Below are positions 50,833 to 62,932 of a stretch of 64,000 bases of DNA, in pieces (the stretch's first letter is position 1; every line of letters starts with the position of its first letter). The notes beneath the pieces were generated by a model that saw nothing but the letters and a program-made list of their open reading frames with translations, was not told where the DNA came from and made no database searches. The position numbers and the translations under genes are program-made. The stretch comes from Anthocerotibacter panamensis C109 (GTDB taxonomy: Bacteria; Cyanobacteriota; Cyanobacteriia; Gloeobacterales; Anthocerotibacteraceae). The stretch covers positions 933,501 through 997,500 of the forward strand of contig NZ_CP062698.1 in NCBI RefSeq assembly GCF_018389385.1. Direction: 5' to 3'.

Positions 50833-51408
50833 CTAGGTAGCAAGATCAAAGGTGAAACCGACTTTATGCTCTTTTCCTAGGTAGAAAGTGTCCCCTGGTT
50901 GGAGCAGGCGGCGGTGACGGGCACCCGCCGGGAGTGGTTGGTCGTTGAGGAAGGTACCGTTGCTGCTCCCGGCATCTTCCAAAAAGAATGTGGTCTCCTG
51001 GATATGGACTGCAGCATGGATGCGCGAGACGATATCCGAATCTGGCAGGTGAGAGACATCGATATCAGGGGGAAAGTCGTCATTGGCTCTGCCGATGTAG
51101 GCGATGGATTTCTCGACTGGGACCTCCAACCGTGCTCCCGTGCCGAGGTGGACCAGAAAGGCTTCCGTCAGTTGGAGGCGGGTTCCTGAGACCGGAGGGC
51201 TGGAGCGGGGGCGAACAAATACGTCCTCTGTGATCCGCGTCGGGGGGCTAGTCCCGCGCAACACGGAGGCAGCAGCCATCGGGAGTGGCGGGCGCGGTGG
51301 GGGCGGTTCTAGGGGCGCAGCGGGTTGGATCAGCTCCACACCACAATCCTCGCAATAGCGGGTGTCCGGGGGATTGGAGATACCACAACTGGGACAGGCA
51401 AGGGACAT
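50833..51408 (-). CDS. Zinc-ribbon and FHA-domain protein in CIS operon
   Basis: The 191-residue protein begins with a zinc ribbon (CPSCGISNPPDTRYCEDCG, residues 5-23), then a Pro-rich linker, then an FHA domain at about 95-185: IAYIGRANDDFP, SDIVSRIHAAVHIQ and DAGSSNGTFLNDQPL carry the Gly-Arg, Ser-Arg-X-His and Asn-Gly residues that bind phosphothreonine. FHA proteins control type VI secretion assembly in Pseudomonas; here the gene follows the membrane protein by ten bases and would add phospho-signalling to the CIS. A serine/threonine kinase is not in the window. Confidence 0.88.
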   Translation of the reverse strand: MSLACPSCGISNPPDTRYCEDCGVELIQPAAPLEPPPPRPPLPMAAASVLRGTSPPTRITEDVFVRPRSSPPVSGTRLQLTEAFLVHLGTGARLEVPVEKSIAYIGRANDDFPPDIDVSHLPDSDIVSRIHAAVHIQETTFFLEDAGSSNGTFLNDQPLPAGARHRRLLQPGDTFYLGKEHKVGFTFDLAT

Positions 51409-51418
51409 AAAAAACTCC

Positions 51419-53737
51419 TCAAGGATTCTTGGTAGCTGGAGCAGGCGTAGCGGGTGGCAGGGGAGCGGGCGGGACTTCCGGGATTGGTGTTTTGTCGATC
51501 GTCTGAATCGTAACGGTCCGAGAGATGGGGTTGCCCGTCTTGGGGGTCACCCGCAGCGTAATCGTCTCGATGGCTGTAGCCCGATTCAGGGTGTAGGTAT
51601 CTGACTGGGTTGGTTTGGGGCCGACGGTGTTGGGGGCTCCATACTTAATCAGGTCTACAGTGACATCGGTGCCCTCCACCTGCCAGAGCAGTTTCGGGTC
51701 GCGGACGGGTTTTTTGGGGTCGTTGACCTCAAAGGTGAGCTTGGTACCGGAGGGCGGAATGGGTTTGCCGTCAATCGTAAAGGAGATAATGCGCGGTGCG
51801 ATGACTTTAACAGCGGCTTTAGGGGTGGGTTTAATCTCAATCACGTCTGCATCCTGAACGACAGTCTCACCCTGCTTCGTCCTCGCTGTCAACTTGAAGC
51901 GGTACTTACCGGGGCGCTTGGCGGCGGTGCGAATGCTGGTACAGGTCAACACTCCGCCCTCCAAGGGACACTTCAACCCCCCGAAATCACCCTTGCTAAA
52001 GTCGTAGCTGCGGGCCAAGGAACTATCCACGATGCCGTCTCGCTGACCGCTCAGGTCCAATTGCTTAACCTGAGCAACGTTCTCAATACGCCAGTTGAGG
52101 AAGATAAAAGTGCTTTTGCCTTCGAGCAAAATGTAGTCTTCGGTGGTCACCGTCAGTTTAGGCGGCTCGGGCGGGCGTTGTAGCCACAGCACCAACAGGA
52201 CTACCGCTCCAATCAATCCCAGGATGGAGATAGCGACGAAGGCCAGTTGCCACCAGGGCCGAGCCCGCCAGAGCAGGGTACTCTGGGGTAGGTTTGGCGG
52301 GAGTTCCTGACCCTTGGCGTCCTCTAGATCGAGGCGGAAGTTGAGGTCGCGCCCCGCCCCAAAAAGAGGCTGCCGCCACCAAGGACGGGGTTGGACGCGC
52401 AGGTCGATGTTGGCGGTCTTGCCGGGGAGGAGTCGCGCCTGACTGGGCTCTAAGCGAAAGGTGCACAGGTCATCTTCGTCTACATGCAGGGCCTGGATCG
52501 TCAGTTCGCGCACGGTGTTGCCCCGGTTGACGAGCTTTACTGCGTATTGGCCCTCGCTATGGGCGACCTTGCCTAAGATGGTCCGCAGTTCTACCTCTAA
52601 TTCATAGACGGGAGGAACCTGGAGGTAGAGCAGATCGAGGAGGTTGAGGGCGCGGTTGTTGGCTGAGGTGACCTGGATCGTGTGGGCATAGACCCCTGCC
52701 AGCGTTCCTTGGGGCGGCTGAAAGAGTACTATGACTTCGCCACGGGTGCCTGGATTGAGTTCCAGTGCGGTGGCCCCACTGATGATACCCACTCCTCCCA
52801 AACTGCCTCCCTGATAGCGCACCGTGTACCAAGCTTCCTCTAGGTCGGGGCAGGTGACTTGGAAGCGGTCCACCTGGTTGGAGCGGTTGTGGACCTGTAC
52901 GGTGACGGTGAGCGGCGAACTGGGTTTGTAGGGAGTACCCGTGGTGAGTAGGGCAGGCAATTCCGGGCTTGTGACCGGATTGAGGATAAACGTCGGGTCG
53001 TTGTCGCGGACCTGCGCATTGGCAGGCCGGGGCTGGATTACTAGGAGTTGGGAGCGCAGGATCGGGTCGGGGTAGTGCTCGGGAGCCTCGACGAGCACCC
53101 CGTACTCGTAGGTTCCTGAGAGGGCTTGGTCTGGTATCTGAAAGTGGAAGGTGACCTCGGTATATTGTCCGGGGCCAAGGGAGAACCGGCCCTGGCGGGG
53201 CGGCTGGCACCACTGGTACATCTGGGACAGTTCGACGACCGAGACGACCACGGTCGGGCTTTGGGTATCCCGGTTAGTCACGACCACTCCCAGGTCAAAA
53301 CTATCTCCGGGGTAGACGACTTGGCTTCCTGGTGGGTCGAGGACGACTTTGAGTGGGGCACTACCGGAGCTGGTGCGGTCGGGGTTGGTGACTTCTAGCG
53401 CGTGGGCATAGCGCAGTGGCGTTTCGTCCGGGTAATGCTGGGGAGCATCCAAAATAACCGTATAAGGATACTTAGCCACTGGAGTCAGGGCCGGGACCTG
53501 GAAGCGCAGGGTCACCTGACCCGTCTGATCGGGGCCGAGGACCAGCCGTTCGCGCGGGGTGAGTAGCCAGGAGCGCAGGGGTGCGACTTCAGCTTCGACC
53601 GTAACTAAAATCTCAGCGGTCTGGCGGCCTTGATTGCGGATATTCAGGAAAACTTCAGTCGTAGTACCTGGAGAGACCACCCGAGCCTGGATGGGGTCAA
53701 AGCGCAGGAGGAGCGGACTGGGCCGACTGGCGGACAT
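51419..53737 (-). CDS. Ig-like repeat membrane protein of CIS operon (anchor candidate)
   Basis: The 772-residue protein has no signal peptide. Residues 1-490 contain four or so beta-sandwich repeats of the type FDPIQARVVSPGTTTEVFLN ... GQVTLRFQVPALTPVA, similar to NEW3/Ig-like domains. One membrane helix is at about 497-519 (WWQLAFVAISILGLIGAVVL). Residues 520-740 again look like Ig-like beta sheets, and the end is Pro-rich. The first base of its start codon overlaps the last base of the WD40 gene. I know no named function; the position suggests a membrane mount for the CIS. Confidence 0.8.
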   Translation of the reverse strand: MSASRPSPLLLRFDPIQARVVSPGTTTEVFLNIRNQGRQTAEILVTVEAEVAPLRSWLLTPRERLVLGPDQTGQVTLRFQVPALTPVAKYPYTVILDAPQHYPDETPLRYAHALEVTNPDRTSSGSAPLKVVLDPPGSQVVYPGDSFDLGVVVTNRDTQSPTVVVSVVELSQMYQWCQPPRQGRFSLGPGQYTEVTFHFQIPDQALSGTYEYGVLVEAPEHYPDPILRSQLLVIQPRPANAQVRDNDPTFILNPVTSPELPALLTTGTPYKPSSPLTVTVQVHNRSNQVDRFQVTCPDLEEAWYTVRYQGGSLGGVGIISGATALELNPGTRGEVIVLFQPPQGTLAGVYAHTIQVTSANNRALNLLDLLYLQVPPVYELEVELRTILGKVAHSEGQYAVKLVNRGNTVRELTIQALHVDEDDLCTFRLEPSQARLLPGKTANIDLRVQPRPWWRQPLFGAGRDLNFRLDLEDAKGQELPPNLPQSTLLWRARPWWQLAFVAISILGLIGAVVLLVLWLQRPPEPPKLTVTTEDYILLEGKSTFIFLNWRIENVAQVKQLDLSGQRDGIVDSSLARSYDFSKGDFGGLKCPLEGGVLTCTSIRTAAKRPGKYRFKLTARTKQGETVVQDADVIEIKPTPKAAVKVIAPRIISFTIDGKPIPPSGTKLTFEVNDPKKPVRDPKLLWQVEGTDVTVDLIKYGAPNTVGPKPTQSDTYTLNRATAIETITLRVTPKTGNPISRTVTIQTIDKTPIPEVPPAPLPPATPAPATKNP

Positions 53738-55860
53738 CAGCGGGCCTCCAGGCGGTGGAGGGACAGCTTCACTTGAGCATCATCGCCCCCGCTCACAATC
53801 TGGAGGGAAGAGCCCACGGCGATCATATCTACGCTATTGATCGGACGGGAACGGCGTTCGATTTCCTCGCGGGTGCCCTGAATCACGCCGAGGTCGTAGT
53901 CTCCATTGACCGGCAGGGTCCAGAGGACTACCCGTCCGTCAAAGCCCCCACTGACCAGATAGTGCCCATCTTTACTCAAGGCCAGGGAGAGCACCGAGTC
54001 GTGGGCTTTCCAGCGGGCGAGGACCGGACAGATCAGGGGTGCCTCGGGGGTGCTGGGGGCACAGCCCGCCAGATTCCAGAGGGTGATCGCGCCTTGCGTG
54101 TCCCCCATAGCGAGGAGGGTCACGTCTTTGATCTGCACCGTAGCCAGGGTTTGGTTGTAGTTGCCATCCCCGGCATCGCCTTGGACCTGGACGCGGCGCG
54201 GGCGGGCACGCGCAGCACGCCAGTCCCAGAGGACCAGACGGTTGAAGTTGCCCGCGACAACCAGGGTCCGTTCGTTGGCTCCAGCTAGGACCATAGCGGA
54301 ATTGGTAAAGTCGAGGACCTGCTGGTTCAGGAGCGTGGGCGGGGTGTCCCCATCGGGCAATTCCCAGCGCAAGACCCCGTTTTGGGCAATCCCCACAAAC
54401 AGGAACTTCGAGTCGCCCGTAAAGAGCAAGTCGCGTACCCGGTCTTCTTTTTTGTAGACGAACTCTTTGAGGGGCGTCTGCTGGTTTTTGTTGAGGACGT
54501 TCCACAGGTCCACCTCGCCATTTTCGAGCGCGGCAGCCACCTGATCGTTGAATTTGGGGCGGTAGCGCAGACGGGCGATGGCCTTATCCGTCTTGGCGAG
54601 GACCCCATCAGCAGTGAGATGGTCCTCTTGGACCCGCCAACGGCGGATGGTCAGATCATCAGAACCGCTCAAAACCGTGTAGCCATCGCCGCTAAAACGC
54701 ACACTGCGCACCGGTCCGGTATGCCCCTCAGCGGGCCACAAACTGAGGATCAAGAGCACCAGAGCAGCTATCAGCCCCAGTATGGCAAGCTGTAACCAGG
54801 GAGGGATGACCGGCATGACCGCTAGCTCTAAGGTAAGGCTCGCTGGGTCAGTGCTCCCCAACCGTTCGTCGGAGAGCTTGGCAGTAGTCTTCAGGCGCAG
54901 GTATTGAGCAAGGCCAATCCAGGGCCGGGGTTTGCTCGCAGTCAGGCGTAAGCAGGTGGAAGCACCCGGTTCTAGGGGAGCGTCGGATGGGTCTAGGGCA
55001 CAGACGCATAGCGGATCACCCACCACCTGGACTTCGACTTGCTGTTGCAGATTACTTGTGTTTTTGAAAGCTAGATCATAGGCAGCAGGGTCTCCCTTCA
55101 AAATTGGCAACCATCCGCCTTGCTCGGGGTACTGGCGCTTGGGGGTATCGCAGCGAAACTGGACGAAGCCGAAGGGTAAAACCTCCAGGACTCCCGTAGC
55201 GGGTGTAACGGAGCCATCCAGGAGGGCCGTAGCTTCGACAGTGAAAGGATAGTCCTGGCTCAACGCCTGGGTCGGGCTGGGGGGCTGACAGACAAAACTC
55301 ACATCCAGTTTGGCGGCGGGGGGCAACTGCACCCGGCGTTCGCTACCTTCAGGCAACCAAGTGGGGTCGAGCCCCAACAGGCGAACGATAACTTCCGTGG
55401 GCTGGCGGGTGAGATTGCGCAAGCTCACCGGGACTTCGACTTTGTTGCGTGGATAAACGCCAAGGCGACGCACCGGCAACCCCAGGTCTAAGAGCGCACC
55501 CATCGCTCCAGGTTCGATGCGCAACCTGAGTAGACTGCGGCGCTCCTGCCGCAGTTCTGTGGAGAAGACCCGCACAATCAGGTTCACCACTCCCACAAAG
55601 CCAGGAATAGGTGCTTCGACAATGCTCACCTCAAAAGGCGTGACACTGCCGGGGGGCTTTTTGGTCCCGGCTTCGATGGGCAGACGGTACCAGCCGAGGA
55701 CCGGGTTGTATTCAGCCCCAGAAGCAGTTACCTCGATCTGAAAGTCCGCCAGCCGGTCACTCTCGTTGGTGACGGTCACCCGGAAGACAGCGGGTACTCC
55801 TCCAGGGCGGAAGGTGATTTCTTTGTCGGATAGCTCGGCACTGATCAGTCGTTGTTCCAT
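53737..55860 (-). CDS. Ig-like/transmembrane/WD40 protein of CIS operon (anchor candidate)
   Basis: The 707-residue protein has three regions. Residues 1-345 are Ig-like beta domains (GGVPAVFRVTVTNESDRLAD is typical). Residues about 354-375 form one membrane helix (WLQLAILGLIAALVLLILSL). Residues 378-707 are a WD40 propeller of about seven blades: GHTGPVRSVRFSGDGYTVLS, SDDLTIRRW and, near the end, KDGHYLVSGGFDGRVVLW. WD40 domains bind other proteins; the combination puts a beta-propeller on one side of a membrane and Ig-like domains on the other. It overlaps the next gene by one base. Confidence 0.85.
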   Translation of the reverse strand: MEQRLISAELSDKEITFRPGGVPAVFRVTVTNESDRLADFQIEVTASGAEYNPVLGWYRLPIEAGTKKPPGSVTPFEVSIVEAPIPGFVGVVNLIVRVFSTELRQERRSLLRLRIEPGAMGALLDLGLPVRRLGVYPRNKVEVPVSLRNLTRQPTEVIVRLLGLDPTWLPEGSERRVQLPPAAKLDVSFVCQPPSPTQALSQDYPFTVEATALLDGSVTPATGVLEVLPFGFVQFRCDTPKRQYPEQGGWLPILKGDPAAYDLAFKNTSNLQQQVEVQVVGDPLCVCALDPSDAPLEPGASTCLRLTASKPRPWIGLAQYLRLKTTAKLSDERLGSTDPASLTLELAVMPVIPPWLQLAILGLIAALVLLILSLWPAEGHTGPVRSVRFSGDGYTVLSGSDDLTIRRWRVQEDHLTADGVLAKTDKAIARLRYRPKFNDQVAAALENGEVDLWNVLNKNQQTPLKEFVYKKEDRVRDLLFTGDSKFLFVGIAQNGVLRWELPDGDTPPTLLNQQVLDFTNSAMVLAGANERTLVVAGNFNRLVLWDWRAARARPRRVQVQGDAGDGNYNQTLATVQIKDVTLLAMGDTQGAITLWNLAGCAPSTPEAPLICPVLARWKAHDSVLSLALSKDGHYLVSGGFDGRVVLWTLPVNGDYDLGVIQGTREEIERRSRPINSVDMIAVGSSLQIVSGGDDAQVKLSLHRLEAR

Positions 55861-55922: not shown

Positions 55923-57131
55923 TCAGGTCGAGGATTCCAGGGAATCTTCCGACTGGAGCCCGACCAAACTCTGTCTACGCCAAGCGTAGTGCAGGAGGTT
56001 GACCCCTAACTCCTGAGCGGTGCGGATGGCGACCCTGGAAGAGGACAGCGCTTCATCCAACCCGCAAGCTGCAATCAAATCACCCACCACTAAGATGATC
56101 CCCCCGCCGGTCAGCAGGCGCAGGCTTTGCTGGTTGAGCGTAGGCAGGGCTGCAAACAAGAAGGGCTGGGTACGGAGCGGGTGATTGCGCCTGAGGCGCT
56201 CCAGATAGTCGAGGGGCGTCTTAAACTGTTCAGCCAAGGCCATCGTGCTCTCCATGAGCGCCGGGGCATCGGGGGGAGCCTCTACCAGCAATACCCCACC
56301 CCGAGCGAGATAAGCCGCTAAAACCCGGCGTTGGCCCGCATCCAGATTGAGGCTGTCGCGGCCTGTGAGATAGAGCAGATCGTAGTTTCCTACGGTCTCT
56401 TCCTGGGGATCGAGGGTCACTTGGCCCACATCACCGGCTCCAGCGAGGGCGGGATAGAGGGCCTCTACAGCTCGCAGGAGGTAGGAGAGGTTGAAGAAAT
56501 TGCGGGTGTGGGTCGGGTCGCTGTGGGTTACTTGCGCCACGCGCACCATTGCCTGGGACCGGGCCCGCGCTTGGGAGCGGAAGCGTAGATCGAGATTGTT
56601 GTAGCCCGGAAAGAACACATCGGCGGGCACACTGAGTTGGACCGGTCCGGGTTGGAGCAAGATGCGGCAGACTTCGACCTCGTTATTGGCAGGGAGGCTG
56701 GTCTTGAGGTCGATACGGAAGGTCTCCCGGACCAGCGTGCGGTTACCTGGGAGGCGCAAGTCATCCGGGTCCACATAGCTCACCACCAGATAGACCATCA
56801 GGGGCTCCTCCCCCACCTGCACCGCAATCTGAAAATTCTCGGGCTCGGGCACGACGATGGGATTTCCACTCACATCCAGCGCAATCCCTGGCTGCAACTG
56901 CACAGAGCGACCATCTCGATACTGGTTGGGCACCGCAGCCCCGGTGGGGATGACGCTCACCCCCAGACCGCTCACGATCCCTGGATGGTGCAGCGACTGA
57001 AAGTGAAAGTTTTGGCGCTTGCGGTGGTAGCTGTGGGCAAGGTCCCAGCGCTCAGCGTTGATGAGCAGACCATCGGCGGCTTGGAGTCGCTCAAAGCTCT
57101 GGATTGGTGGGAAGGGGTAAAACTGGCTCAT
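55923..57131 (-). CDS. DUF4159-type CIS-associated protein
   Basis: The 402-residue protein has an N-terminal part with LLINAERWDLAHSYHRKRQN and GIVSGLGVSV, which I associate with CIS or phage tail loci, and a C-terminal part with GNYDLLYLTGRDSLNLDAGQ and YLARGGVLLVEAPPDAP, the pattern of DUF4159 (a flavodoxin-like or GATase-like fold). The role is unknown. It overlaps the tail-protein gene by four bases and is followed, after 62 bases, by the WD40 gene. Confidence 0.75.
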   Translation of the reverse strand: MSQFYPFPPIQSFERLQAADGLLINAERWDLAHSYHRKRQNFHFQSLHHPGIVSGLGVSVIPTGAAVPNQYRDGRSVQLQPGIALDVSGNPIVVPEPENFQIAVQVGEEPLMVYLVVSYVDPDDLRLPGNRTLVRETFRIDLKTSLPANNEVEVCRILLQPGPVQLSVPADVFFPGYNNLDLRFRSQARARSQAMVRVAQVTHSDPTHTRNFFNLSYLLRAVEALYPALAGAGDVGQVTLDPQEETVGNYDLLYLTGRDSLNLDAGQRRVLAAYLARGGVLLVEAPPDAPALMESTMALAEQFKTPLDYLERLRRNHPLRTQPFLFAALPTLNQQSLRLLTGGGIILVVGDLIAACGLDEALSSSRVAIRTAQELGVNLLHYAWRRQSLVGLQSEDSLESST

Positions 57132-58141
57132 AGCGCACTCGCAGGTAGAGAAGTTAGGCCATCAATGTATAGTTCGTAGGTGCAAAAAGCAGGCTTTTCC
57201 TGGTCTAGGATCTGCCGGACCAAGCCCTCATCCACCTGACTTGCACCCCGCAGGTGCACGATGAAGTGGTAGGGGCGGCCTCCTCCGAGCAGGGCTCCTT
57301 CGCCCAAACGCGCTTGCGCCAGCACAAAACCCTGGCCCGTGGGTTCGACGATACTAATATGTTTGGCGGCTTCGGGCAGATCTTCATCCAAGGGGAGCCC
57401 TGTGTACAGATGCAGGTAGAAGCGCAGGCCCCGCCGGGTGCCCCGCCAGCGGTAAATCTCCAGCGCATGGCGGATCAAACGGCGCTGCTGGACTAGCGGC
57501 CAATGGAATTCCACCGGCCAAGCCACCCAGTGCGCTAGAAAGGGCAGCATGGCTTCAGGAGCAGTCAAAGGGTCCAAGTAAGCCCAGAGAGTATCCATAA
57601 TCTGGACTGCTGGCTCGAAGGTCTCTTCAAAGACCTTCAGAAAACGCCCAATAAAATCAACCTCCCGGTACAACTGGGGCAGGTAGTTTAGGTAGAGGCT
57701 GCGAGGCCGGACATGAAAGGGAAATTGTTCGCAGATAATCTGGGTGTCGTTGCCTTCGCGGTAGGTAATGGTGAGGCGGCAAGTATAATCCGCGTTGAGG
57801 GGAGCATGGGAGCGCGCGTCATCCTCAAAGAAAGTGGCCGGTATCTGAAAGTAGAGCACGGCATCCATTTGTTTTTGCGGTAGCAACTCCCGCCCCTCTG
57901 TACCCAAGCGGCACCAATAGGCGGGGAAGTCGCCTTCGACCTGGATCTTTAGGTTGTGTAGCGTCTGGGTAGGACTTTGATTGTAGAGGTGCAGGACCAT
58001 TTCACTGGGTTCGCCGGGATAGGCGACCAACCGTTTGCCCTCCTCCAGCAGGTCCTGCGGTCGGAGTGGCAGAGGGGTTTCGGGCACCTGCATAGGAGTC
58101 AAGGAACAGAATAGCGCCGTGGAGGGAGGGGCCTGACTCAT
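57128..58141 (-). CDS. CIS/phage tail protein with added Ig-like domain
   Basis: The 337-residue protein has two parts. Residues about 148-337 (LYLNYLPQLYREVDFIGRFL, then APEAMLPFLAHWVAWPVEFH and RGTRRGLRFYLHLYTG) fit the TIGR02242-type phage tail protein, a baseplate wedge component. Residues about 30-145 (LVAYPGEPSEMVLHLYNQSP, then WCRLGTEGRELLPQKQ and YFQIPATFFEDD) form a beta domain similar in pattern to the Ig-like repeats of the two membrane proteins in the same operon. It overlaps the baseplate J gene by four bases. Confidence 0.85.
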   Translation of the reverse strand: MSQAPPSTALFCSLTPMQVPETPLPLRPQDLLEEGKRLVAYPGEPSEMVLHLYNQSPTQTLHNLKIQVEGDFPAYWCRLGTEGRELLPQKQMDAVLYFQIPATFFEDDARSHAPLNADYTCRLTITYREGNDTQIICEQFPFHVRPRSLYLNYLPQLYREVDFIGRFLKVFEETFEPAVQIMDTLWAYLDPLTAPEAMLPFLAHWVAWPVEFHWPLVQQRRLIRHALEIYRWRGTRRGLRFYLHLYTGLPLDEDLPEAAKHISIVEPTGQGFVLAQARLGEGALLGGGRPYHFIVHLRGASQVDEGLVRQILDQEKPAFCTYELYIDGLTSLPASAL

Positions 58142-60315
58142 CGCTCGCGGTTGATAAGGTTGACGATATGGCTGGAGCGGCGGCGGCTGTCAGCCCAGGA
58201 GCAGACCAACCCCAAAGGACCGGGGTCCACCATAGGAACCCGTTCGCGCAGCCAAGTATCTCCGGTCGCCCGCAGCCGGAATAGCTGTACATCCCCCAGA
58301 TAGCGCACTCCAGGGATCTGTTGTAGGAGCGCGACGATGTCCGAGGGGTAGACGGGCCGCCCGAAGGGCCAGCCCTGACGCTCCAGACCACCCAGCAACG
58401 GGTTGAGAAAGCGATAGAGGGCCACCCTGAGGCTAAAGAGGATCTCCTGCTGCGCCCGAGGATTATCATAGGCGGGCTCCAGACTCACTTCAGTCTGGAC
58501 AGTCACGCCCACGTATTCTGGCTCCTGGAGGATCACCTGGGTCCCGAGCAATTTGCGCTCATCTAAAAAAGTCTGGACCTGCTCTTGGAGTGCGTGGGTC
58601 AGCGCAAAGATTTCTGGGGCCAGCCCCTCTCCTTGCTGGATGGGTTCGGGGTCAGCCTGAGGAACCAAAAGCAAGCGCACCACTCCCGCTTCTGCCACCT
58701 TGCTAGGAGTGAGGCAAAGAGCACGGGCTACCGCCCCTCGTCCTCCTTGATAGGCGAGGGTTTCATAGTCTTCCTGGGTGACTGCTCGGTCGCGGGTCCT
58801 GAGAATCCGCGGAGCCCGCAAGACCGCTTGGTCGAGGGATTCGGCATCGGCCCCGTTGCGGGCGGGGCCGTGGTTGGTGACGCGGGCGACATAGGGCACC
58901 GCCGACTTGAGTACTCGGAGCGTTTGAGACTGGACATTCCCCTGTCGGCCCCCGCCGGTACGATAGCCCACCATGACCAGGGTCGCCCCCCGAGGCGGAA
59001 CAGCTCCGTACTGGCGCTCCTGACTGGACAACTCCACCATGTCACTCTGTCCGTTGAGGGCTCGAAATTGGGTCTTTAGCTGGAGCTGACCGGGCTCACG
59101 GACCAAGGGGCCAAACTGGAGGACTCCAGTGAGCGAATCCAGGGTGTAATGCAGGTCGTCGGGGCCAGATTCAGCGAAGTCAATGACCTCGCGCCAGGTC
59201 TGAGGAGGGCCACCGGGAGGCGTGACCAAAAGATATTCTTCCAGGCGACGGGCGAGGATGGGTGCCCCCTGGAGTTGGAAGCTTTGTCCGGGGATACCGT
59301 CGCTAGTCCCGACTACTTCATGGCGAATAGTAGTGCTATGGCTGACCGGAATTGTCCCGCCGATGGCTCGGGTCGCCACTCCGGTGATACGCGGGGAACT
59401 GGCGTAGGGCGGCTGGCTAGGGAGCGGTTCGGTGAGCATACAGCGCAGCCAACGGCCCTGGTAAGCGGCTCCAAAGGTGGTCACAGGCCAGTGCTGGGGC
59501 ATGTGCAGCACTACATCAGCCCCCTGGATCGGGTTGGGGCCTTGTTGGGTCTCGCTAAAGCTGAACCCTCGGGTGTGGTCATCCCCCTCCTGCATGAGGA
59601 CCGGCTCCCACCCCTCCCCGCTCCAGGCTTCCCAGCGACGCGGCGGAGTATTGGGGTTGATGCCCGTCGTTGTCGCCTCTGCTCCCCAAAAAGTAACCGA
59701 CAGGACGTTTCCTTCCAAGGGCTGGTCCCCGAAGACCAGATAAAAACAATTCCCAGCCTGCGGTACCTCATCAAAGAGGGCTTGTTCTGTGCCCACCCAC
59801 TGACCGTTGGACCGCTGGTTCCACAGGTCGGTGAAGCGGTCGCGTAGATTTTGAGGCGTCTCCTCCTTAATCTGCGCACTCAGCAGAAGGAGCAACTCAG
59901 GATTGCCGATAAGCAAGGTGCGGTCTGTAGTAAAAGTTATTGCCTCGTCCACCTGGGTCCGTTCTGTGGCGACCTCGGTTCCGGTAGGAATACTGTAGAC
60001 CTCAGGTAGGCTATTAGTCAGGTAGAACGTCACCTCGGTCTGGGCAGGAGCCGGGGGCATCAGCCGGATCCCCAACAGTTCTAGGAAGGTCACGTAGTTA
60101 CGCCGGGGTACCTGATTGAAGCGCAGGAGCATCTGGTCGGTCAGCCACGCAAACAACTCAATGAGCGTGATTCCTGGGTCACTGGCATTGTAGTCAGTCC
60201 ACTCGGGGCAATAGCGAGGGATGCGTAGGATGCATTCCTCGACCAGATCTTTGAAGGTCCGGTCATCTAAATTTGACTTGGGCAGTTGGGTCAGGAACTT
60301 AAATTCCACAGTCAC
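58138..60315 (-). CDS. Baseplate assembly protein (gp6/J-like, TIGR02243 type)
   Basis: The protein forms the wedge ring of a contractile tail baseplate. The 725-residue sequence begins LPKSNLDDRTFKDLVEECIL and has WTDYNASDPGITLIELFAWL, TDQMLLRFNQVPRRNYVTFL (about 50-69) and, in the J-like core, RAPRILRTRDRAVTQEDYET. Its length and these motifs fit the CIS type (Afp11/Pvc11-like). The gene overlaps gp25 and the tail-protein gene by four bases each, as expected for one operon. Confidence 0.93.
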   Translation of the reverse strand: MTVEFKFLTQLPKSNLDDRTFKDLVEECILRIPRYCPEWTDYNASDPGITLIELFAWLTDQMLLRFNQVPRRNYVTFLELLGIRLMPPAPAQTEVTFYLTNSLPEVYSIPTGTEVATERTQVDEAITFTTDRTLLIGNPELLLLLSAQIKEETPQNLRDRFTDLWNQRSNGQWVGTEQALFDEVPQAGNCFYLVFGDQPLEGNVLSVTFWGAEATTTGINPNTPPRRWEAWSGEGWEPVLMQEGDDHTRGFSFSETQQGPNPIQGADVVLHMPQHWPVTTFGAAYQGRWLRCMLTEPLPSQPPYASSPRITGVATRAIGGTIPVSHSTTIRHEVVGTSDGIPGQSFQLQGAPILARRLEEYLLVTPPGGPPQTWREVIDFAESGPDDLHYTLDSLTGVLQFGPLVREPGQLQLKTQFRALNGQSDMVELSSQERQYGAVPPRGATLVMVGYRTGGGRQGNVQSQTLRVLKSAVPYVARVTNHGPARNGADAESLDQAVLRAPRILRTRDRAVTQEDYETLAYQGGRGAVARALCLTPSKVAEAGVVRLLLVPQADPEPIQQGEGLAPEIFALTHALQEQVQTFLDERKLLGTQVILQEPEYVGVTVQTEVSLEPAYDNPRAQQEILFSLRVALYRFLNPLLGGLERQGWPFGRPVYPSDIVALLQQIPGVRYLGDVQLFRLRATGDTWLRERVPMVDPGPLGLVCSWADSRRRSSHIVNLINRER

Positions 60316-60728
60316 TCCGCCTTGGGCAACAAATAAAAGGGAAAGACCATACTCGCTGGATCAGGGCGGTCTTTGATACGGTAGCTGACGAGAATATTCA
60401 CACGGCCCAAGATCGGGTCGGGGTCCGTATCAATGCTCAGGATTTTGATGCGGGGTTCCCAGAGGATGAGGGCTTCTTCTACATGCAGGCGGATGAGCAT
60501 AAGGGTTTCGGTATTGAGCGGGGCGAAGGCCAATTCGGACAGGCGCGAACCAAAATTGGGCCGGTACACGCGCTCCCTAAGGCTAGTACGCAAGATGATC
60601 CGAATCGATTCTTCAATGTCCTGAGCCCCAGGACTGAGTTGAATGCCACCTTGCACATTGATTTGGAGGGGGAAGGACCACCCGTTCCCGAGAAAGGCGG
60701 GCTGTTTACCCCTGACGAGTTCCGCCAT
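60312..60728 (-). CDS. gp25-like baseplate wedge protein
   Basis: The 138-residue protein has the gp25/GPW fold signature: GGIQLSPGAQDIEESIRIIL, RTSLRERVYRPNFGSRLSEL (the Glu-Pro-Arg-type core is partly varied) and EPRIKILSIDTDPD. It joins the sheath-proximal ring to the wedge in contractile tails. The ATG at 60728 is preferred to a GTG three codons upstream. It is 74 bases from the PAAR gene. Confidence 0.92.
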   Translation of the reverse strand: MAELVRGKQPAFLGNGWSFPLQINVQGGIQLSPGAQDIEESIRIILRTSLRERVYRPNFGSRLSELAFAPLNTETLMLIRLHVEEALILWEPRIKILSIDTDPDPILGRVNILVSYRIKDRPDPASMVFPFYLLPKAE

Positions 60729-60802
60729 GTGCCGCACCTAGTAAGCGCTTACATGGTACCAACGCCCCGCTCCATGCGCCTATTCGCCAAAGGTCGAGTG
60801 TC

Positions 60803-61105
60803 TCAAGGTCCGATGAGTACCGTCGGGCAACCCGCAACGATGGGGTTAGGACCACCGGGGGTCTCGATAACTTGATCCATGACCCGGCAGGCCATCATGT
60901 TGTTGATCAAGACGGTGGAGCTGCCCATGATGACCGTCCCGCCCACATCGGGGACGGGGCCTTTGGACCTGGGACAAGCATGGAAATCCATCGTGGTGCG
61001 CCAAGCGGGTTGTCCGCCAATGATTACATTCATACTCCCTGGACCTGGGGCGAGGGGACTACCATGGCTGGTTGCATCACCGACGCGTGCTGCGGGTTGA
61101 CCCAT
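60803..61105 (-). CDS. PAAR-domain spike tip protein
   Basis: The 100-residue protein has the PAAR repeats: MGQPAARVGDATSHGSPLAP, GGTVIMGSSTVLINNMMACR and GGPNPIVAGCPTVLIGP. PAAR proteins form a sharp conical tip on VgrG spikes and bind one metal via His and Cys residues. It starts 12 bases after the VgrG-like gene. It has no effector extension. Confidence 0.93.
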   Translation of the reverse strand: MGQPAARVGDATSHGSPLAPGPGSMNVIIGGQPAWRTTMDFHACPRSKGPVPDVGGTVIMGSSTVLINNMMACRVMDQVIETPGGPNPIVAGCPTVLIGP

Positions 61106-61117
61106 AAATTTCTCCGG

Positions 61118-62932
61118 TTAGTTGAGTTTGATGGGGAAGCCACTGACATTGACCATTGCGCCGGAAATATTGGTCGTGCCGGTCGCTCCTAGCTTCATAG
61201 ATGTGCCCGCATCCATCCCGACGCTCGTGGTGGCCTGAATACTGAAACTGGTCCCAGCCTGGATTTTGATATCCTGCGCCGCCTTGATTTCCATACTGCC
61301 AATCGAACTCATCGTGATTTTTTGGCCTTGGTCATCCAGTCGGAGTTTATGGCCGCCAGCGGTCTGGACTTCGACAAATTTCTCACTGTCGTTGATGCGG
61401 ATGTGGTGTCCGCCCTGAGTCTGGATATAGACCCCGCACTTCGTCGCGCCCTTGTCCTCCTCAACGAATTGGAGCTTGTGACCAAGACGGGTTTTAAAGG
61501 TTCTCAGGCGCGTTTTGCCCCCGACAACATCGTCGTCCACTTTCTCGGGGGTCGGGTCGGTACCGTTCCAGACGCCACCCAGGACATAGGGGCGGTGAAT
61601 ATCCCCATGCTCGAAGGCGACCAGGACTTCATCATTGACCTCCGGGAGGCAGTCAAATCCCCGGTTAGGACCGGCCCCAATGGAGACTACTCTGGCCCAA
61701 TTGCTCTCGTGCGCCTCCGTGAGGGTCGGAAACTTAATCTTGACGCGGCCCCAGCCTTTGGGGTCTTTGTTGTTGGTGACAACACCGACCATGAGGGTCT
61801 GACCGGGCTCCAGACTCCGCGCCGGAGCGAGGATATCAAGGAGCGTCCCGCCTCTGAGTCCCCGCACGCTAAATTCGGTGGTGTAGGTGCGATTTTGGAA
61901 GATGTGGCGGGTCTCCGTGACATAGTACTGACCGGAATAGGTCCCCATCTCCTGGAGCTTGACCACCTTGCCCACCCGGAGTAGCGCATTCCCCTCGCCC
62001 TTGGCATCAGCACAGACAAATTCACCCCCCAACTCGTTGTAGAGGGCTTTGGCGATCTGGTCTGCCTCCGCCACAACAAACATCGGCTGGTCTACAACAA
62101 TAGCCTTGGGCTGGGCTGGTCGAAACTTACTGACACTCGCACTGCCCTTTCCGTTCTCGGTCGAGGTTTGGATCTGTTCGGAGTTAGCCGTGGAGACGAT
62201 AGCTTTTTTGGTAGTGTAGTCCCAGCCGCGCACTTCGACCTCGCCCACTTGCTCGGCACTGGTCATGCGCACCCGGAAACTGTGGATGTCCTTCAGCCAT
62301 TTAAGATCTAACGTGGCATCGACTTTGGGTTTGCGGAAGTTGAGCTTGCCGTTCTGGACGTAGAGTTCAAACCCGAGACGGGCGGCTCGTTCGCGCAGGA
62401 ATTCCATGTTGGTCTGGTTTTCCTGGAAAAGATATTCGTGGGGGCTTCCGGTACGCTCCACAGTGCCCGCTGGGATGCCCACCTCCCCGATAATTCGGTT
62501 GACGATATCGCTGTCAGTCATATTCAGAAAAGAGCGATTGTAGCGCCCCCGGTGCAGCCGATGGGCAACGTCATAGCCACGCACAATAATGGGAGCCTGG
62601 GATTCGCCTGAGAAGTGGGCCTCAATGCCGGTGATCTCTCCTTCCAGAATGCAGGGCTCGTCACGGGCTACGGAGAAGTCTTGAGCCTGAGAGGTGCTGG
62701 AATTGAAGCCAATCTCGACCTTCTTGCCGAGGGTGAGCAGACTGGCGTGACGCCAAGCTTTGTCCTGATCACGGTGTCCTGAAAAGTAGGGATTATCGAT
62801 GACCAGCGTGAACATACCGGGCAAATGTAGACTTTCCTCGACCACAATTTGCAGGATGTCTTCCATTAATTCAGGCGTCGCCTCTTTGCCGTCAATTTTG
62901 AGGATAGGTAGGGGACGATAGCTGGCAGACAT
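61118..62932 (-). CDS. VgrG/gp5-like CIS spike protein
   Basis: The 604-residue protein forms the central spike. Residues 1-370 have gp27-like domains (LPILKIDGKEATPELMEDIL, RYNRSFLNMTDSDIVNRIIG, FLRERAARLGFELYVQNGKL). Residues 380-480 form the OB-like gp5 domain (VGVVTNNKDPKGWGRVKIKF, then NDEVLVAFEHGDIHRPYVLG). The C-terminal 120 residues form a beta-helix spike with repeats such as GSMEIKAAQDIKIQAGTSFS. It is 85 bases from the tube-type gene. Confidence 0.94.
   Translation of the reverse strand: MSASYRPLPILKIDGKEATPELMEDILQIVVEESLHLPGMFTLVIDNPYFSGHRDQDKAWRHASLLTLGKKVEIGFNSSTSQAQDFSVARDEPCILEGEITGIEAHFSGESQAPIIVRGYDVAHRLHRGRYNRSFLNMTDSDIVNRIIGEVGIPAGTVERTGSPHEYLFQENQTNMEFLRERAARLGFELYVQNGKLNFRKPKVDATLDLKWLKDIHSFRVRMTSAEQVGEVEVRGWDYTTKKAIVSTANSEQIQTSTENGKGSASVSKFRPAQPKAIVVDQPMFVVAEADQIAKALYNELGGEFVCADAKGEGNALLRVGKVVKLQEMGTYSGQYYVTETRHIFQNRTYTTEFSVRGLRGGTLLDILAPARSLEPGQTLMVGVVTNNKDPKGWGRVKIKFPTLTEAHESNWARVVSIGAGPNRGFDCLPEVNDEVLVAFEHGDIHRPYVLGGVWNGTDPTPEKVDDDVVGGKTRLRTFKTRLGHKLQFVEEDKGATKCGVYIQTQGGHHIRINDSEKFVEVQTAGGHKLRLDDQGQKITMSSIGSMEIKAAQDIKIQAGTSFSIQATTSVGMDAGTSMKLGATGTTNISGAMVNVSGFPIKLN

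What the first reader, a model, noticed from the sequence alone, without database searches (positions are those of the whole stretch)
57128..58141. Baseplate tail protein fused to an Ig-like domain similar to those of the membrane proteins
The first 145 residues are not part of the tail-protein family and share the pattern Tyr-Pro-Gly, a hydrophobic strand, Asn-X-Ser/Gln and Trp with a late Gln/Ile-Pro strand, seen in the two membrane proteins of the operon. The fusion could provide a docking contact between baseplate and membrane.
Basis: partly seen in the sequence, partly recalled or inferred. Interest (0 to 1): 0.72.

Follow-up and report, generated by a model that had tools for sequence, protein, structure and literature searches.

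The report
Ig-tagged baseplate subunit, membrane-linked injection machine
In many cyanobacteria, including the thylakoid-less lineage of this window, one baseplate protein of a phage-tail-like injection machine carries an extra immunoglobulin-like domain from the same small family as domains in two membrane proteins that nearly always accompany the machine, which suggests, but does not prove, how it attaches to a membrane.

Summary
On the minus strand, 57128-58141 encodes a 337-residue Cis12/gpI-type baseplate protein (Tail_P2_I in the C-terminal part). Its N-terminal ~145 residues contain a separate, confidently modelled Ig-like sandwich (residues 38-144). Profile comparison places this domain with the pre-transmembrane Ig repeats of both membrane proteins (best 96%, E 3e-9); shuffled, reversed and other cluster segments score at most 2.6%. 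In 59 genomes the domain's profile matches nothing else except those two proteins. The domain is absent from Streptomyces Cis12 (free-floating cytoplasmic CIS); in one Deinococcus protein an FHA domain sits there instead.

New here: across 194 cyanobacterial genomes the Ig-tagged subunit (49 genomes) co-occurs with the DUF4159 protein (49/49), the WD40-Ig membrane protein (48/49) and the NEW3-Ig membrane protein (48/49). Genomes without it have 0/145 DUF4159, 0/145 WD40-Ig and 7/145 NEW3-like orphans. This holds even where the genes are unlinked.

Docking of baseplate to membrane is the best reading, but contact is inferred; bridging through the DUF4159 protein is a serious rival. The window organism belongs to the thylakoid-less Gloeobacterales, so any anchoring would be at the cytoplasmic membrane.

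The parts
57128..58141 (-). Cis12/gpI-type baseplate protein, 337 aa
   Evidence: Pfam Tail_P2_I E 2.2e-9; best solved relative is Cis12 of the Streptomyces coelicolor CIS, 9GTP chain E, E 1.1e-5
57698..58048 (-). N-terminal Ig-like domain (residues 32-148)
   Evidence: hhalign to Ig repeats of membrane proteins up to 96%; AF2 beta sandwich, ten-residue pLDDT means 79-97; specific in 59 genomes
57164..57697 (-). conserved Cis12/Tail_P2_I core (residues 149-326)
   Evidence: profile hits Deinococcus, Streptomyces, Haloferax and other CIS tail proteins
58138..60315 (-). baseplate J protein (Cis11-like)
   Evidence: PF04865; matches 9GTP Cis11 over 668 residues, E 1e-120
60312..60737 (-). gp25-like wedge (Cis9-like)
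   Evidence: PF04965 E 6.6e-20
60803..61105 (-). PAAR-like spike tip
   Evidence: sequence and position; orthologs; no family scan run
61118..62932 (-). VgrG-like spike (Cis8-like)
   Evidence: PF04717, PF05954
63018..63557 (-). CIS tube-type protein (Cis7-like)
   Evidence: PF19266 E 3.9e-19
55923..57131 (-). DUF4159 protein, start overlaps the stop of the tail gene by 4 bases
   Evidence: PF13709 E 1.2e-11; co-occurs 49/49 with the tagged subunit, 0/145 without
53737..55860 (-). WD40 membrane protein: three Ig repeats, one TM, beta propeller
   Evidence: co-occurs 48/49 and 0/145
55165..55503 (-). WD40 protein Ig2 (residues 120-232), relative of the tail-protein domain
   Evidence: hhalign 95.7% / 82.7%
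51419..53737 (-). NEW3-type membrane protein: Ig repeats, one TM, C-terminal domains
   Evidence: PF10633 E 4.1e-10; AF2 strands 129-490, helix 495-519; co-occurs 48/49 and 7/145
53024..53368 (-). NEW3 protein Ig2 (residues 124-238), closest relative of the tail-protein domain
   Evidence: hhalign 96.1% / 93.2%
52610..53002 (-). NEW3 protein Ig3 (residues 246-376)
   Evidence: hhalign 95.7% / 92.0%
50833..51408 (-). zinc-ribbon FHA protein of the same gene string
   Evidence: PF00498 E 1.1e-13

Best explanation
The gene encodes the Cis12 wedge subunit of a Streptomyces-CIS-like contractile injection system. In cyanobacteria this subunit gained at its N terminus a copy of the same Ig-like domain that is repeated on the predicted cytoplasmic side of two single-pass membrane proteins (NEW3 type and WD40 type). 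By analogy with CIS-Sc, six copies would sit on the baseplate (two Cis11 and one Cis12 per wedge). There they act as adaptor knobs that couple the baseplate to a dedicated membrane module (DUF4159 protein, WD40-Ig protein, NEW3-Ig protein), by Ig-Ig contact (best candidate NEW3 Ig2) or bridged by the DUF4159 protein. Shown by computation: the domain, the relationship, the co-occurrence, the absence from Streptomyces Cis12. Inferred: the peripheral position, the contact, and that the module anchors or triggers the particle at the cytoplasmic membrane (thylakoids are absent in Gloeobacterales).
For: Domain relationship with controls and genome-wide specificity: 8 of 8 non-self hits in the two membrane genes in 59 genomes, while annotated NEW3 domains are nearly absent in cyanobacteria (0 of 20 genomes; 1 of 339), so spread of the domain within the system is the simplest origin. 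Co-occurrence in 194 genomes: WD40-Ig 48/49 vs 0/145, NEW3-Ig 48/49 vs 7/145, DUF4159 49/49 vs 0/145; it holds when the genes are unlinked (17/17 genomes). In PLSDB the WD40-Ig protein was found on only three plasmids, all carrying this baseplate. Topology: no N-terminal signal, one TM after the Ig repeats; in Deinococcus homologs the order is kinase, FHA, Ig repeats, TM, which places the Ig repeats on the cytoplasmic side. Precedent: the Cis12 extra domain forms the wide connector to the thylakoid membrane in Anabaena (PMC8894136), and Cis12/13 are proposed for membrane attachment in haloarchaea (PMC11566945). The fold resembles GGA/adaptin ear and VAP MSP interaction domains.
Against: No direct contact evidence; coevolution specific to the domain is weak. 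The domain could serve DUF4159, whose gene stays next to the tail gene in 75 of 80 loci while WD40/NEW3 are often elsewhere. Deinococcus grandis has an Ig-repeat membrane protein but a Cis12 without this domain, so the tag is not required for such partners. NEW3-like orphans exist without this baseplate (7 genomes). Co-occurrence counts are phylogenetically non-independent. The position of the Cis12 N terminus on the particle was not examined.
Confidence: 0.5

Rival explanations
1. The domain is the docking site for the DUF4159 protein, acting as an accessory in the place where other CIS have a tail fibre, and does not itself face the membrane proteins.
For: The DUF4159 gene directly follows the tail gene in most clusters, with a 4-base overlap in the window, and co-occurs 49/49 vs 0/145.
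Against: In about eight genomes DUF4159 leaves the tail gene and travels with WD40 and NEW3 instead (G107 C44, G144, G070, G192, G085, G168, G162, G137), so it belongs to the membrane module too; no Ig similarity in DUF4159 segments.
Confidence: 0.22
2. The domain is an internal structural part of the baseplate (packing on Cis11, a neighbouring wedge or the spike); its similarity to the membrane proteins reflects only shared ancestry.
For: Extra Cis11/Cis12 domains with structural roles exist in tCIS (PMC8894136); Ig domains are common structural modules.
Against: The domain evolves much faster than the core (mean distance 1.39 vs 0.59) and its linker varies in length, as expected of a peripheral module; absent in the otherwise similar CIS-Sc baseplate; co-occurrence with the membrane module.
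Confidence: 0.2
3. The domain recognises an external ligand (peptide or glycan on a target cell) after release, as in an extracellular CIS.
For: Foldseek hits include Ig linkers of sialidases and GH123 enzymes and peptide-binding ear/MSP domains.
Against: The profile's only other genomic matches are own-cell membrane proteins, present in nearly every genome with the system; ear and MSP binders act inside cells.
Confidence: 0.08

Closest known systems
Streptomyces coelicolor CIS (CIS-Sc, type IId eCIS, PDB 9GTP, PMC12237407)
   Same: Cis11 aligns over almost its whole length (E 1e-120); Cis12 core homologous; a membrane protein (CisA) is needed for firing there
   Different: CIS-Sc Cis12 is 190 aa without the Ig domain; CisA has a largely unstructured cytoplasmic part and a C-terminal domain like periplasmic substrate-binding domains; no Ig or WD40 repeats are described
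Thylakoid-anchored CIS of Anabaena (tCIS, PMC8894136)
   Same: cyanobacterial; an extra domain of Cis12 makes a connection to a membrane
   Different: the unresolved part of tCIS Cis12 has a putative amphipathic helix; the Ig-domain profile hits no PDB sequence at E <= 10; J is closest by far to CIS-Sc; the window organism belongs to thylakoid-less Gloeobacterales
Haloarchaeal membrane-anchored CIS (PMC11566945)
   Same: baseplate feet touch the cytoplasmic membrane; a co-conserved putative membrane anchor protein
   Different: that anchor has six TM helices and a ~150-residue cytoplasmic domain; a Haloferax tail protein has no match to the Ig-domain profile
Deinococcus CIS on plasmids
   Same: Cis12 core and an Ig-repeat membrane partner homologous to NEW3/WD40 Ig regions; D. 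psychrotolerans Cis12 also carries an N-terminal add-on domain
   Different: that add-on is an FHA domain, and the partner carries kinase + FHA + Ig repeats; D. grandis Cis12 has none

Membership tests
CIS-Sc-like (type IId) contractile injection system | Cis11 (J) homologous along its length to CIS-Sc Cis11 | tested here: met
   E 1e-120 over residues 11-678
CIS-Sc-like (type IId) contractile injection system | Cis12 with Tail_P2_I core | tested here: met
CIS-Sc-like (type IId) contractile injection system | sheath and tube genes present in the genome | tested here: met
   sheath and two gp19-type tube genes at 2.61-2.62 Mb, unlinked to the window cluster
CIS-Sc-like (type IId) contractile injection system | wedge of two Cis11 and one Cis12 | not testable with these tools
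   needs a structure
Thylakoid-anchored CIS (tCIS) | thylakoid membranes in the host | tested here: not met
   same-order genomes are Gloeobacterales by contig-length match; Gloeobacterales lack thylakoids (PMC13174344 abstract)
Thylakoid-anchored CIS (tCIS) | Cis11/Cis12 close to the Anabaena baseplate proteins | tested here: inconclusive
   J: PDB hits at E <= 0.01 are only 9gtp, 7aeb (E 3e-6, not identified here) and 8kea; tail protein: 9gtp is the only CIS chain at E <= 10; tCIS chains were not compared directly
Thylakoid-anchored CIS (tCIS) | Cis13 with TM helix and Cis19 crown | not tested
   no query run
NEW3-type Ig-like domain family (PF10633) | curated Pfam score 24.4 bits | tested here: not met
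   tail-protein domain: no hit for the window, 15.6 and 16.5 bits for two orthologs; whole NEW3 membrane protein 40.2 bits
NEW3-type Ig-like domain family (PF10633) | Ig-like beta sandwich fold | tested here: met
   AF2 and Foldseek

The most novel reading that the evidence does not exclude
A membrane-anchoring scheme for contractile injection systems: the baseplate wedge protein and its membrane anchors were wired together by spreading one Ig-like domain between them, and Cis12 N-terminal add-ons (Ig in cyanobacteria, FHA in a Deinococcus) match domains found in each system's own membrane or signalling partner, so the add-on may identify the partner.
Probability: 0.3. Interest if true: 0.8.

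Novelty: new variant of a known kind. Interest (0 to 1): 0.62.

Why it matters
How contractile injection systems other than the classical T6SS attach to or sense their own membrane is open in tCIS, CIS-Sc and haloarchaea. This names a four-protein set (Ig-tagged Cis12, DUF4159, WD40-Ig, NEW3-Ig) with near-complete co-occurrence across cyanobacteria, including the thylakoid-less base of the phylum, and gives a small soluble domain whose binding to specific Ig repeats can be tested directly.

Tried and rejected
Chance similarity: rejected by shuffles, reversals, off-target segments and genome-wide specificity. Generic NEW3 resemblance: made unlikely, since NEW3 domains over threshold are almost absent in cyanobacteria and the one unrelated hit scores <=1%. 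Idea that the tag occurs without the membrane proteins: many Nostocales clusters lack WD40/NEW3 near the baseplate, but all 17 genomes checked have them somewhere. G183 first seemed to lack NEW3 but has a divergent copy beside WD40 and DUF4159. Mirror-tree test: not conclusive. PDB sequence search with the domain profile: no hits. Viral contigs: no relatives. Charge counts around the TM were not informative. Literature: no paper found in the searches run that describes these Ig proteins in CIS. One alignment call and one family scan failed on stop codons and were repeated with corrected coordinates.

Full report
WHAT IS THERE. The window lies in a 4,187,797-base single-contig genome. The minus-strand string is: CIS_tube, VgrG, PAAR, gp25, J, tail protein (57128-58141), DUF4159 protein, WD40 membrane protein, NEW3 membrane protein, FHA protein. 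Sheath and tube genes sit elsewhere, at about 2.61-2.62 Mb.

WHICH CIS. The J protein aligns with Cis11 of the Streptomyces coelicolor CIS over almost its whole length (9GTP, E 1e-120). The tail protein aligns with its Cis12, but only from residue 152 on, where the Streptomyces chain has 20 residues before the match (9GTP identified). The N-terminal part is therefore an addition relative to that cytoplasmic system. In other phyla: Streptomyces clavuligerus Cis12 (222 aa) and D. grandis Cis12 (155 aa) have no match to the domain profile; D. psychrotolerans Cis12 has an FHA domain there; tail proteins of Roseomonas, Cereibacter, Paenibacillus, Haloferax and a second CIS type of Nostoc have long N-terminal parts without a match to it.

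THE DOMAIN. Across 47 orthologs the domain shows G-x-F-P and Trp (residues 70-76) and Phe-Glu (105-106) as invariant. AlphaFold2 gives strands 38-40, 45-54, 61-70, 77-81, 91-99, 118-129, 132-144, with ten-residue means of pLDDT from 79 to 97 (pTM of the whole 0.52, so its placement relative to the core is not reliable). Foldseek finds Ig-type domains: sialidase Ig linkers, GGA and adaptin ears, VAP MSP, PapD-like ASH domains, a FixG-related protein. The NEW3 model finds chains of the ciliary central apparatus first, and chains of the same entries (9ijj, 7som) are also among the hits of the tail-protein model; these are low-TM matches and only indicate fold class.

RELATIONSHIP TO THE MEMBRANE PROTEINS. 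hhalign, 40 tail orthologs: NEW3 Ig2 96.1%, Ig3 95.7%, Ig4 89.7%; WD40 Ig1 86.0%, Ig2 95.7%, Ig3 50.7%; all else at most 2.6% and shuffles at most 1.4%. With other alignments, NEW3 Ig2/Ig3 and WD40 Ig2 stay high and the others fall. Single window sequences still give 65% (NEW3 Ig2) and 52% (WD40 Ig2); an unrelated NEW3-like protein gives <=1%. An hmmsearch of 59 genomes with the domain profile at E <= 0.1 returned, besides the tail proteins, eight matches, all in NEW3 or WD40 genes (E 0.005-0.07 each, so the single matches are weak and it is the pattern that counts). NEW3 domains above threshold were found in 0 of 20 and 1 of 339 cyanobacterial genomes. Spread of one domain within the system is the simplest origin.

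CO-OCCURRENCE. In 194 genomes, strong tail-protein matches occur in 49; WD40-Ig in 48 of these and in none of 145 others; NEW3-Ig in 47 by the search threshold plus a divergent copy in G183, against 7 of 145 others; DUF4159 in 49 and none. The exception (G084) is 79% complete. Fisher values (5e-45) ignore shared descent and are only descriptive. In many genomes WD40 and NEW3 lie far from the baseplate, yet all 17 such or control genomes tested had both. Where the set splits, DUF4159 goes either with the tail gene (most Nostocales) or with WD40-NEW3. G107 has two tail proteins and two WD40-NEW3 sets. Three cyanobacterial plasmids carry both J and WD40; one (Oscillatoria PCC 7112) carries J without a WD40 hit on the same plasmid.

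TOPOLOGY. NEW3 and WD40 proteins show one strong hydrophobic segment after the Ig repeats and no N-terminal signal; flanking charges do not decide orientation. Deinococcus homologs have kinase, FHA, Ig repeats, then TM; kinase and FHA domains act in the cytoplasm, so the Ig repeats there are cytoplasmic. By homology the same is inferred here.

MECHANISM. Inferred: six Ig knobs on the baseplate connect the particle to the DUF4159/WD40/NEW3 module at the cytoplasmic membrane, to hold it or let it fire. Precedents are tCIS, where an extra Cis12 domain is the wide connector and a possible membrane partner is unknown (PMC8894136), and the haloarchaeal system (PMC11566945). A partial mirror-tree test favours NEW3 Ig2 weakly (r 0.22, p 0.028 uncorrected). 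Contact via DUF4159, or a purely structural role, is not excluded.

VERDICT. Observation confirmed; interpretation plausible and strengthened, not demonstrated. New variant of a known kind.

Noticed in passing
L177:13938-14864 and L170:14791-19575 (Deinococcus psychrotolerans plasmid): Cis12 there carries an N-terminal FHA domain and the next gene encodes a kinase-FHA-Ig repeat-TM protein, a parallel case of a domain shared between Cis12 and the membrane partner.
   Followed up: partly
L201:8047-10149 (genome 2.61 Mb): Beside FHA and tube genes and near the sheath gene: a 701-aa protein with zinc-ribbon/kinase-like N-terminal part, one TM and a PBP-like C-terminal domain (E 1.9e-8), reminiscent of Streptomyces CisA (TM plus periplasmic-binding-like C-terminal domain).
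   Followed up: partly
L032 (genome 1001501-1020000): Upstream of the cluster several proteins begin with different enzyme-like parts and share a stretch around 'PFYPQFLLPLGTQTLGVLQPLTIALKEMAGYEPPDYSF'; possibly cargo with a common loading region, a close variant of which is also in the very long low-complexity protein at genome 997084-1001499.
   Followed up: no
G114, G120, G133, G147, G169, G175, G187: NEW3-like membrane proteins in genomes without a strong match to this baseplate protein and without the WD40-Ig protein; orphan role unknown.
   Followed up: partly
51419-53737 and 53737-55860: The membrane-proximal Ig domains of the two membrane proteins (NEW3 Ig4 and WD40 Ig3) match each other at 98%, suggesting the two proteins are ancient paralogs in their Ig-TM part.
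   Followed up: partly
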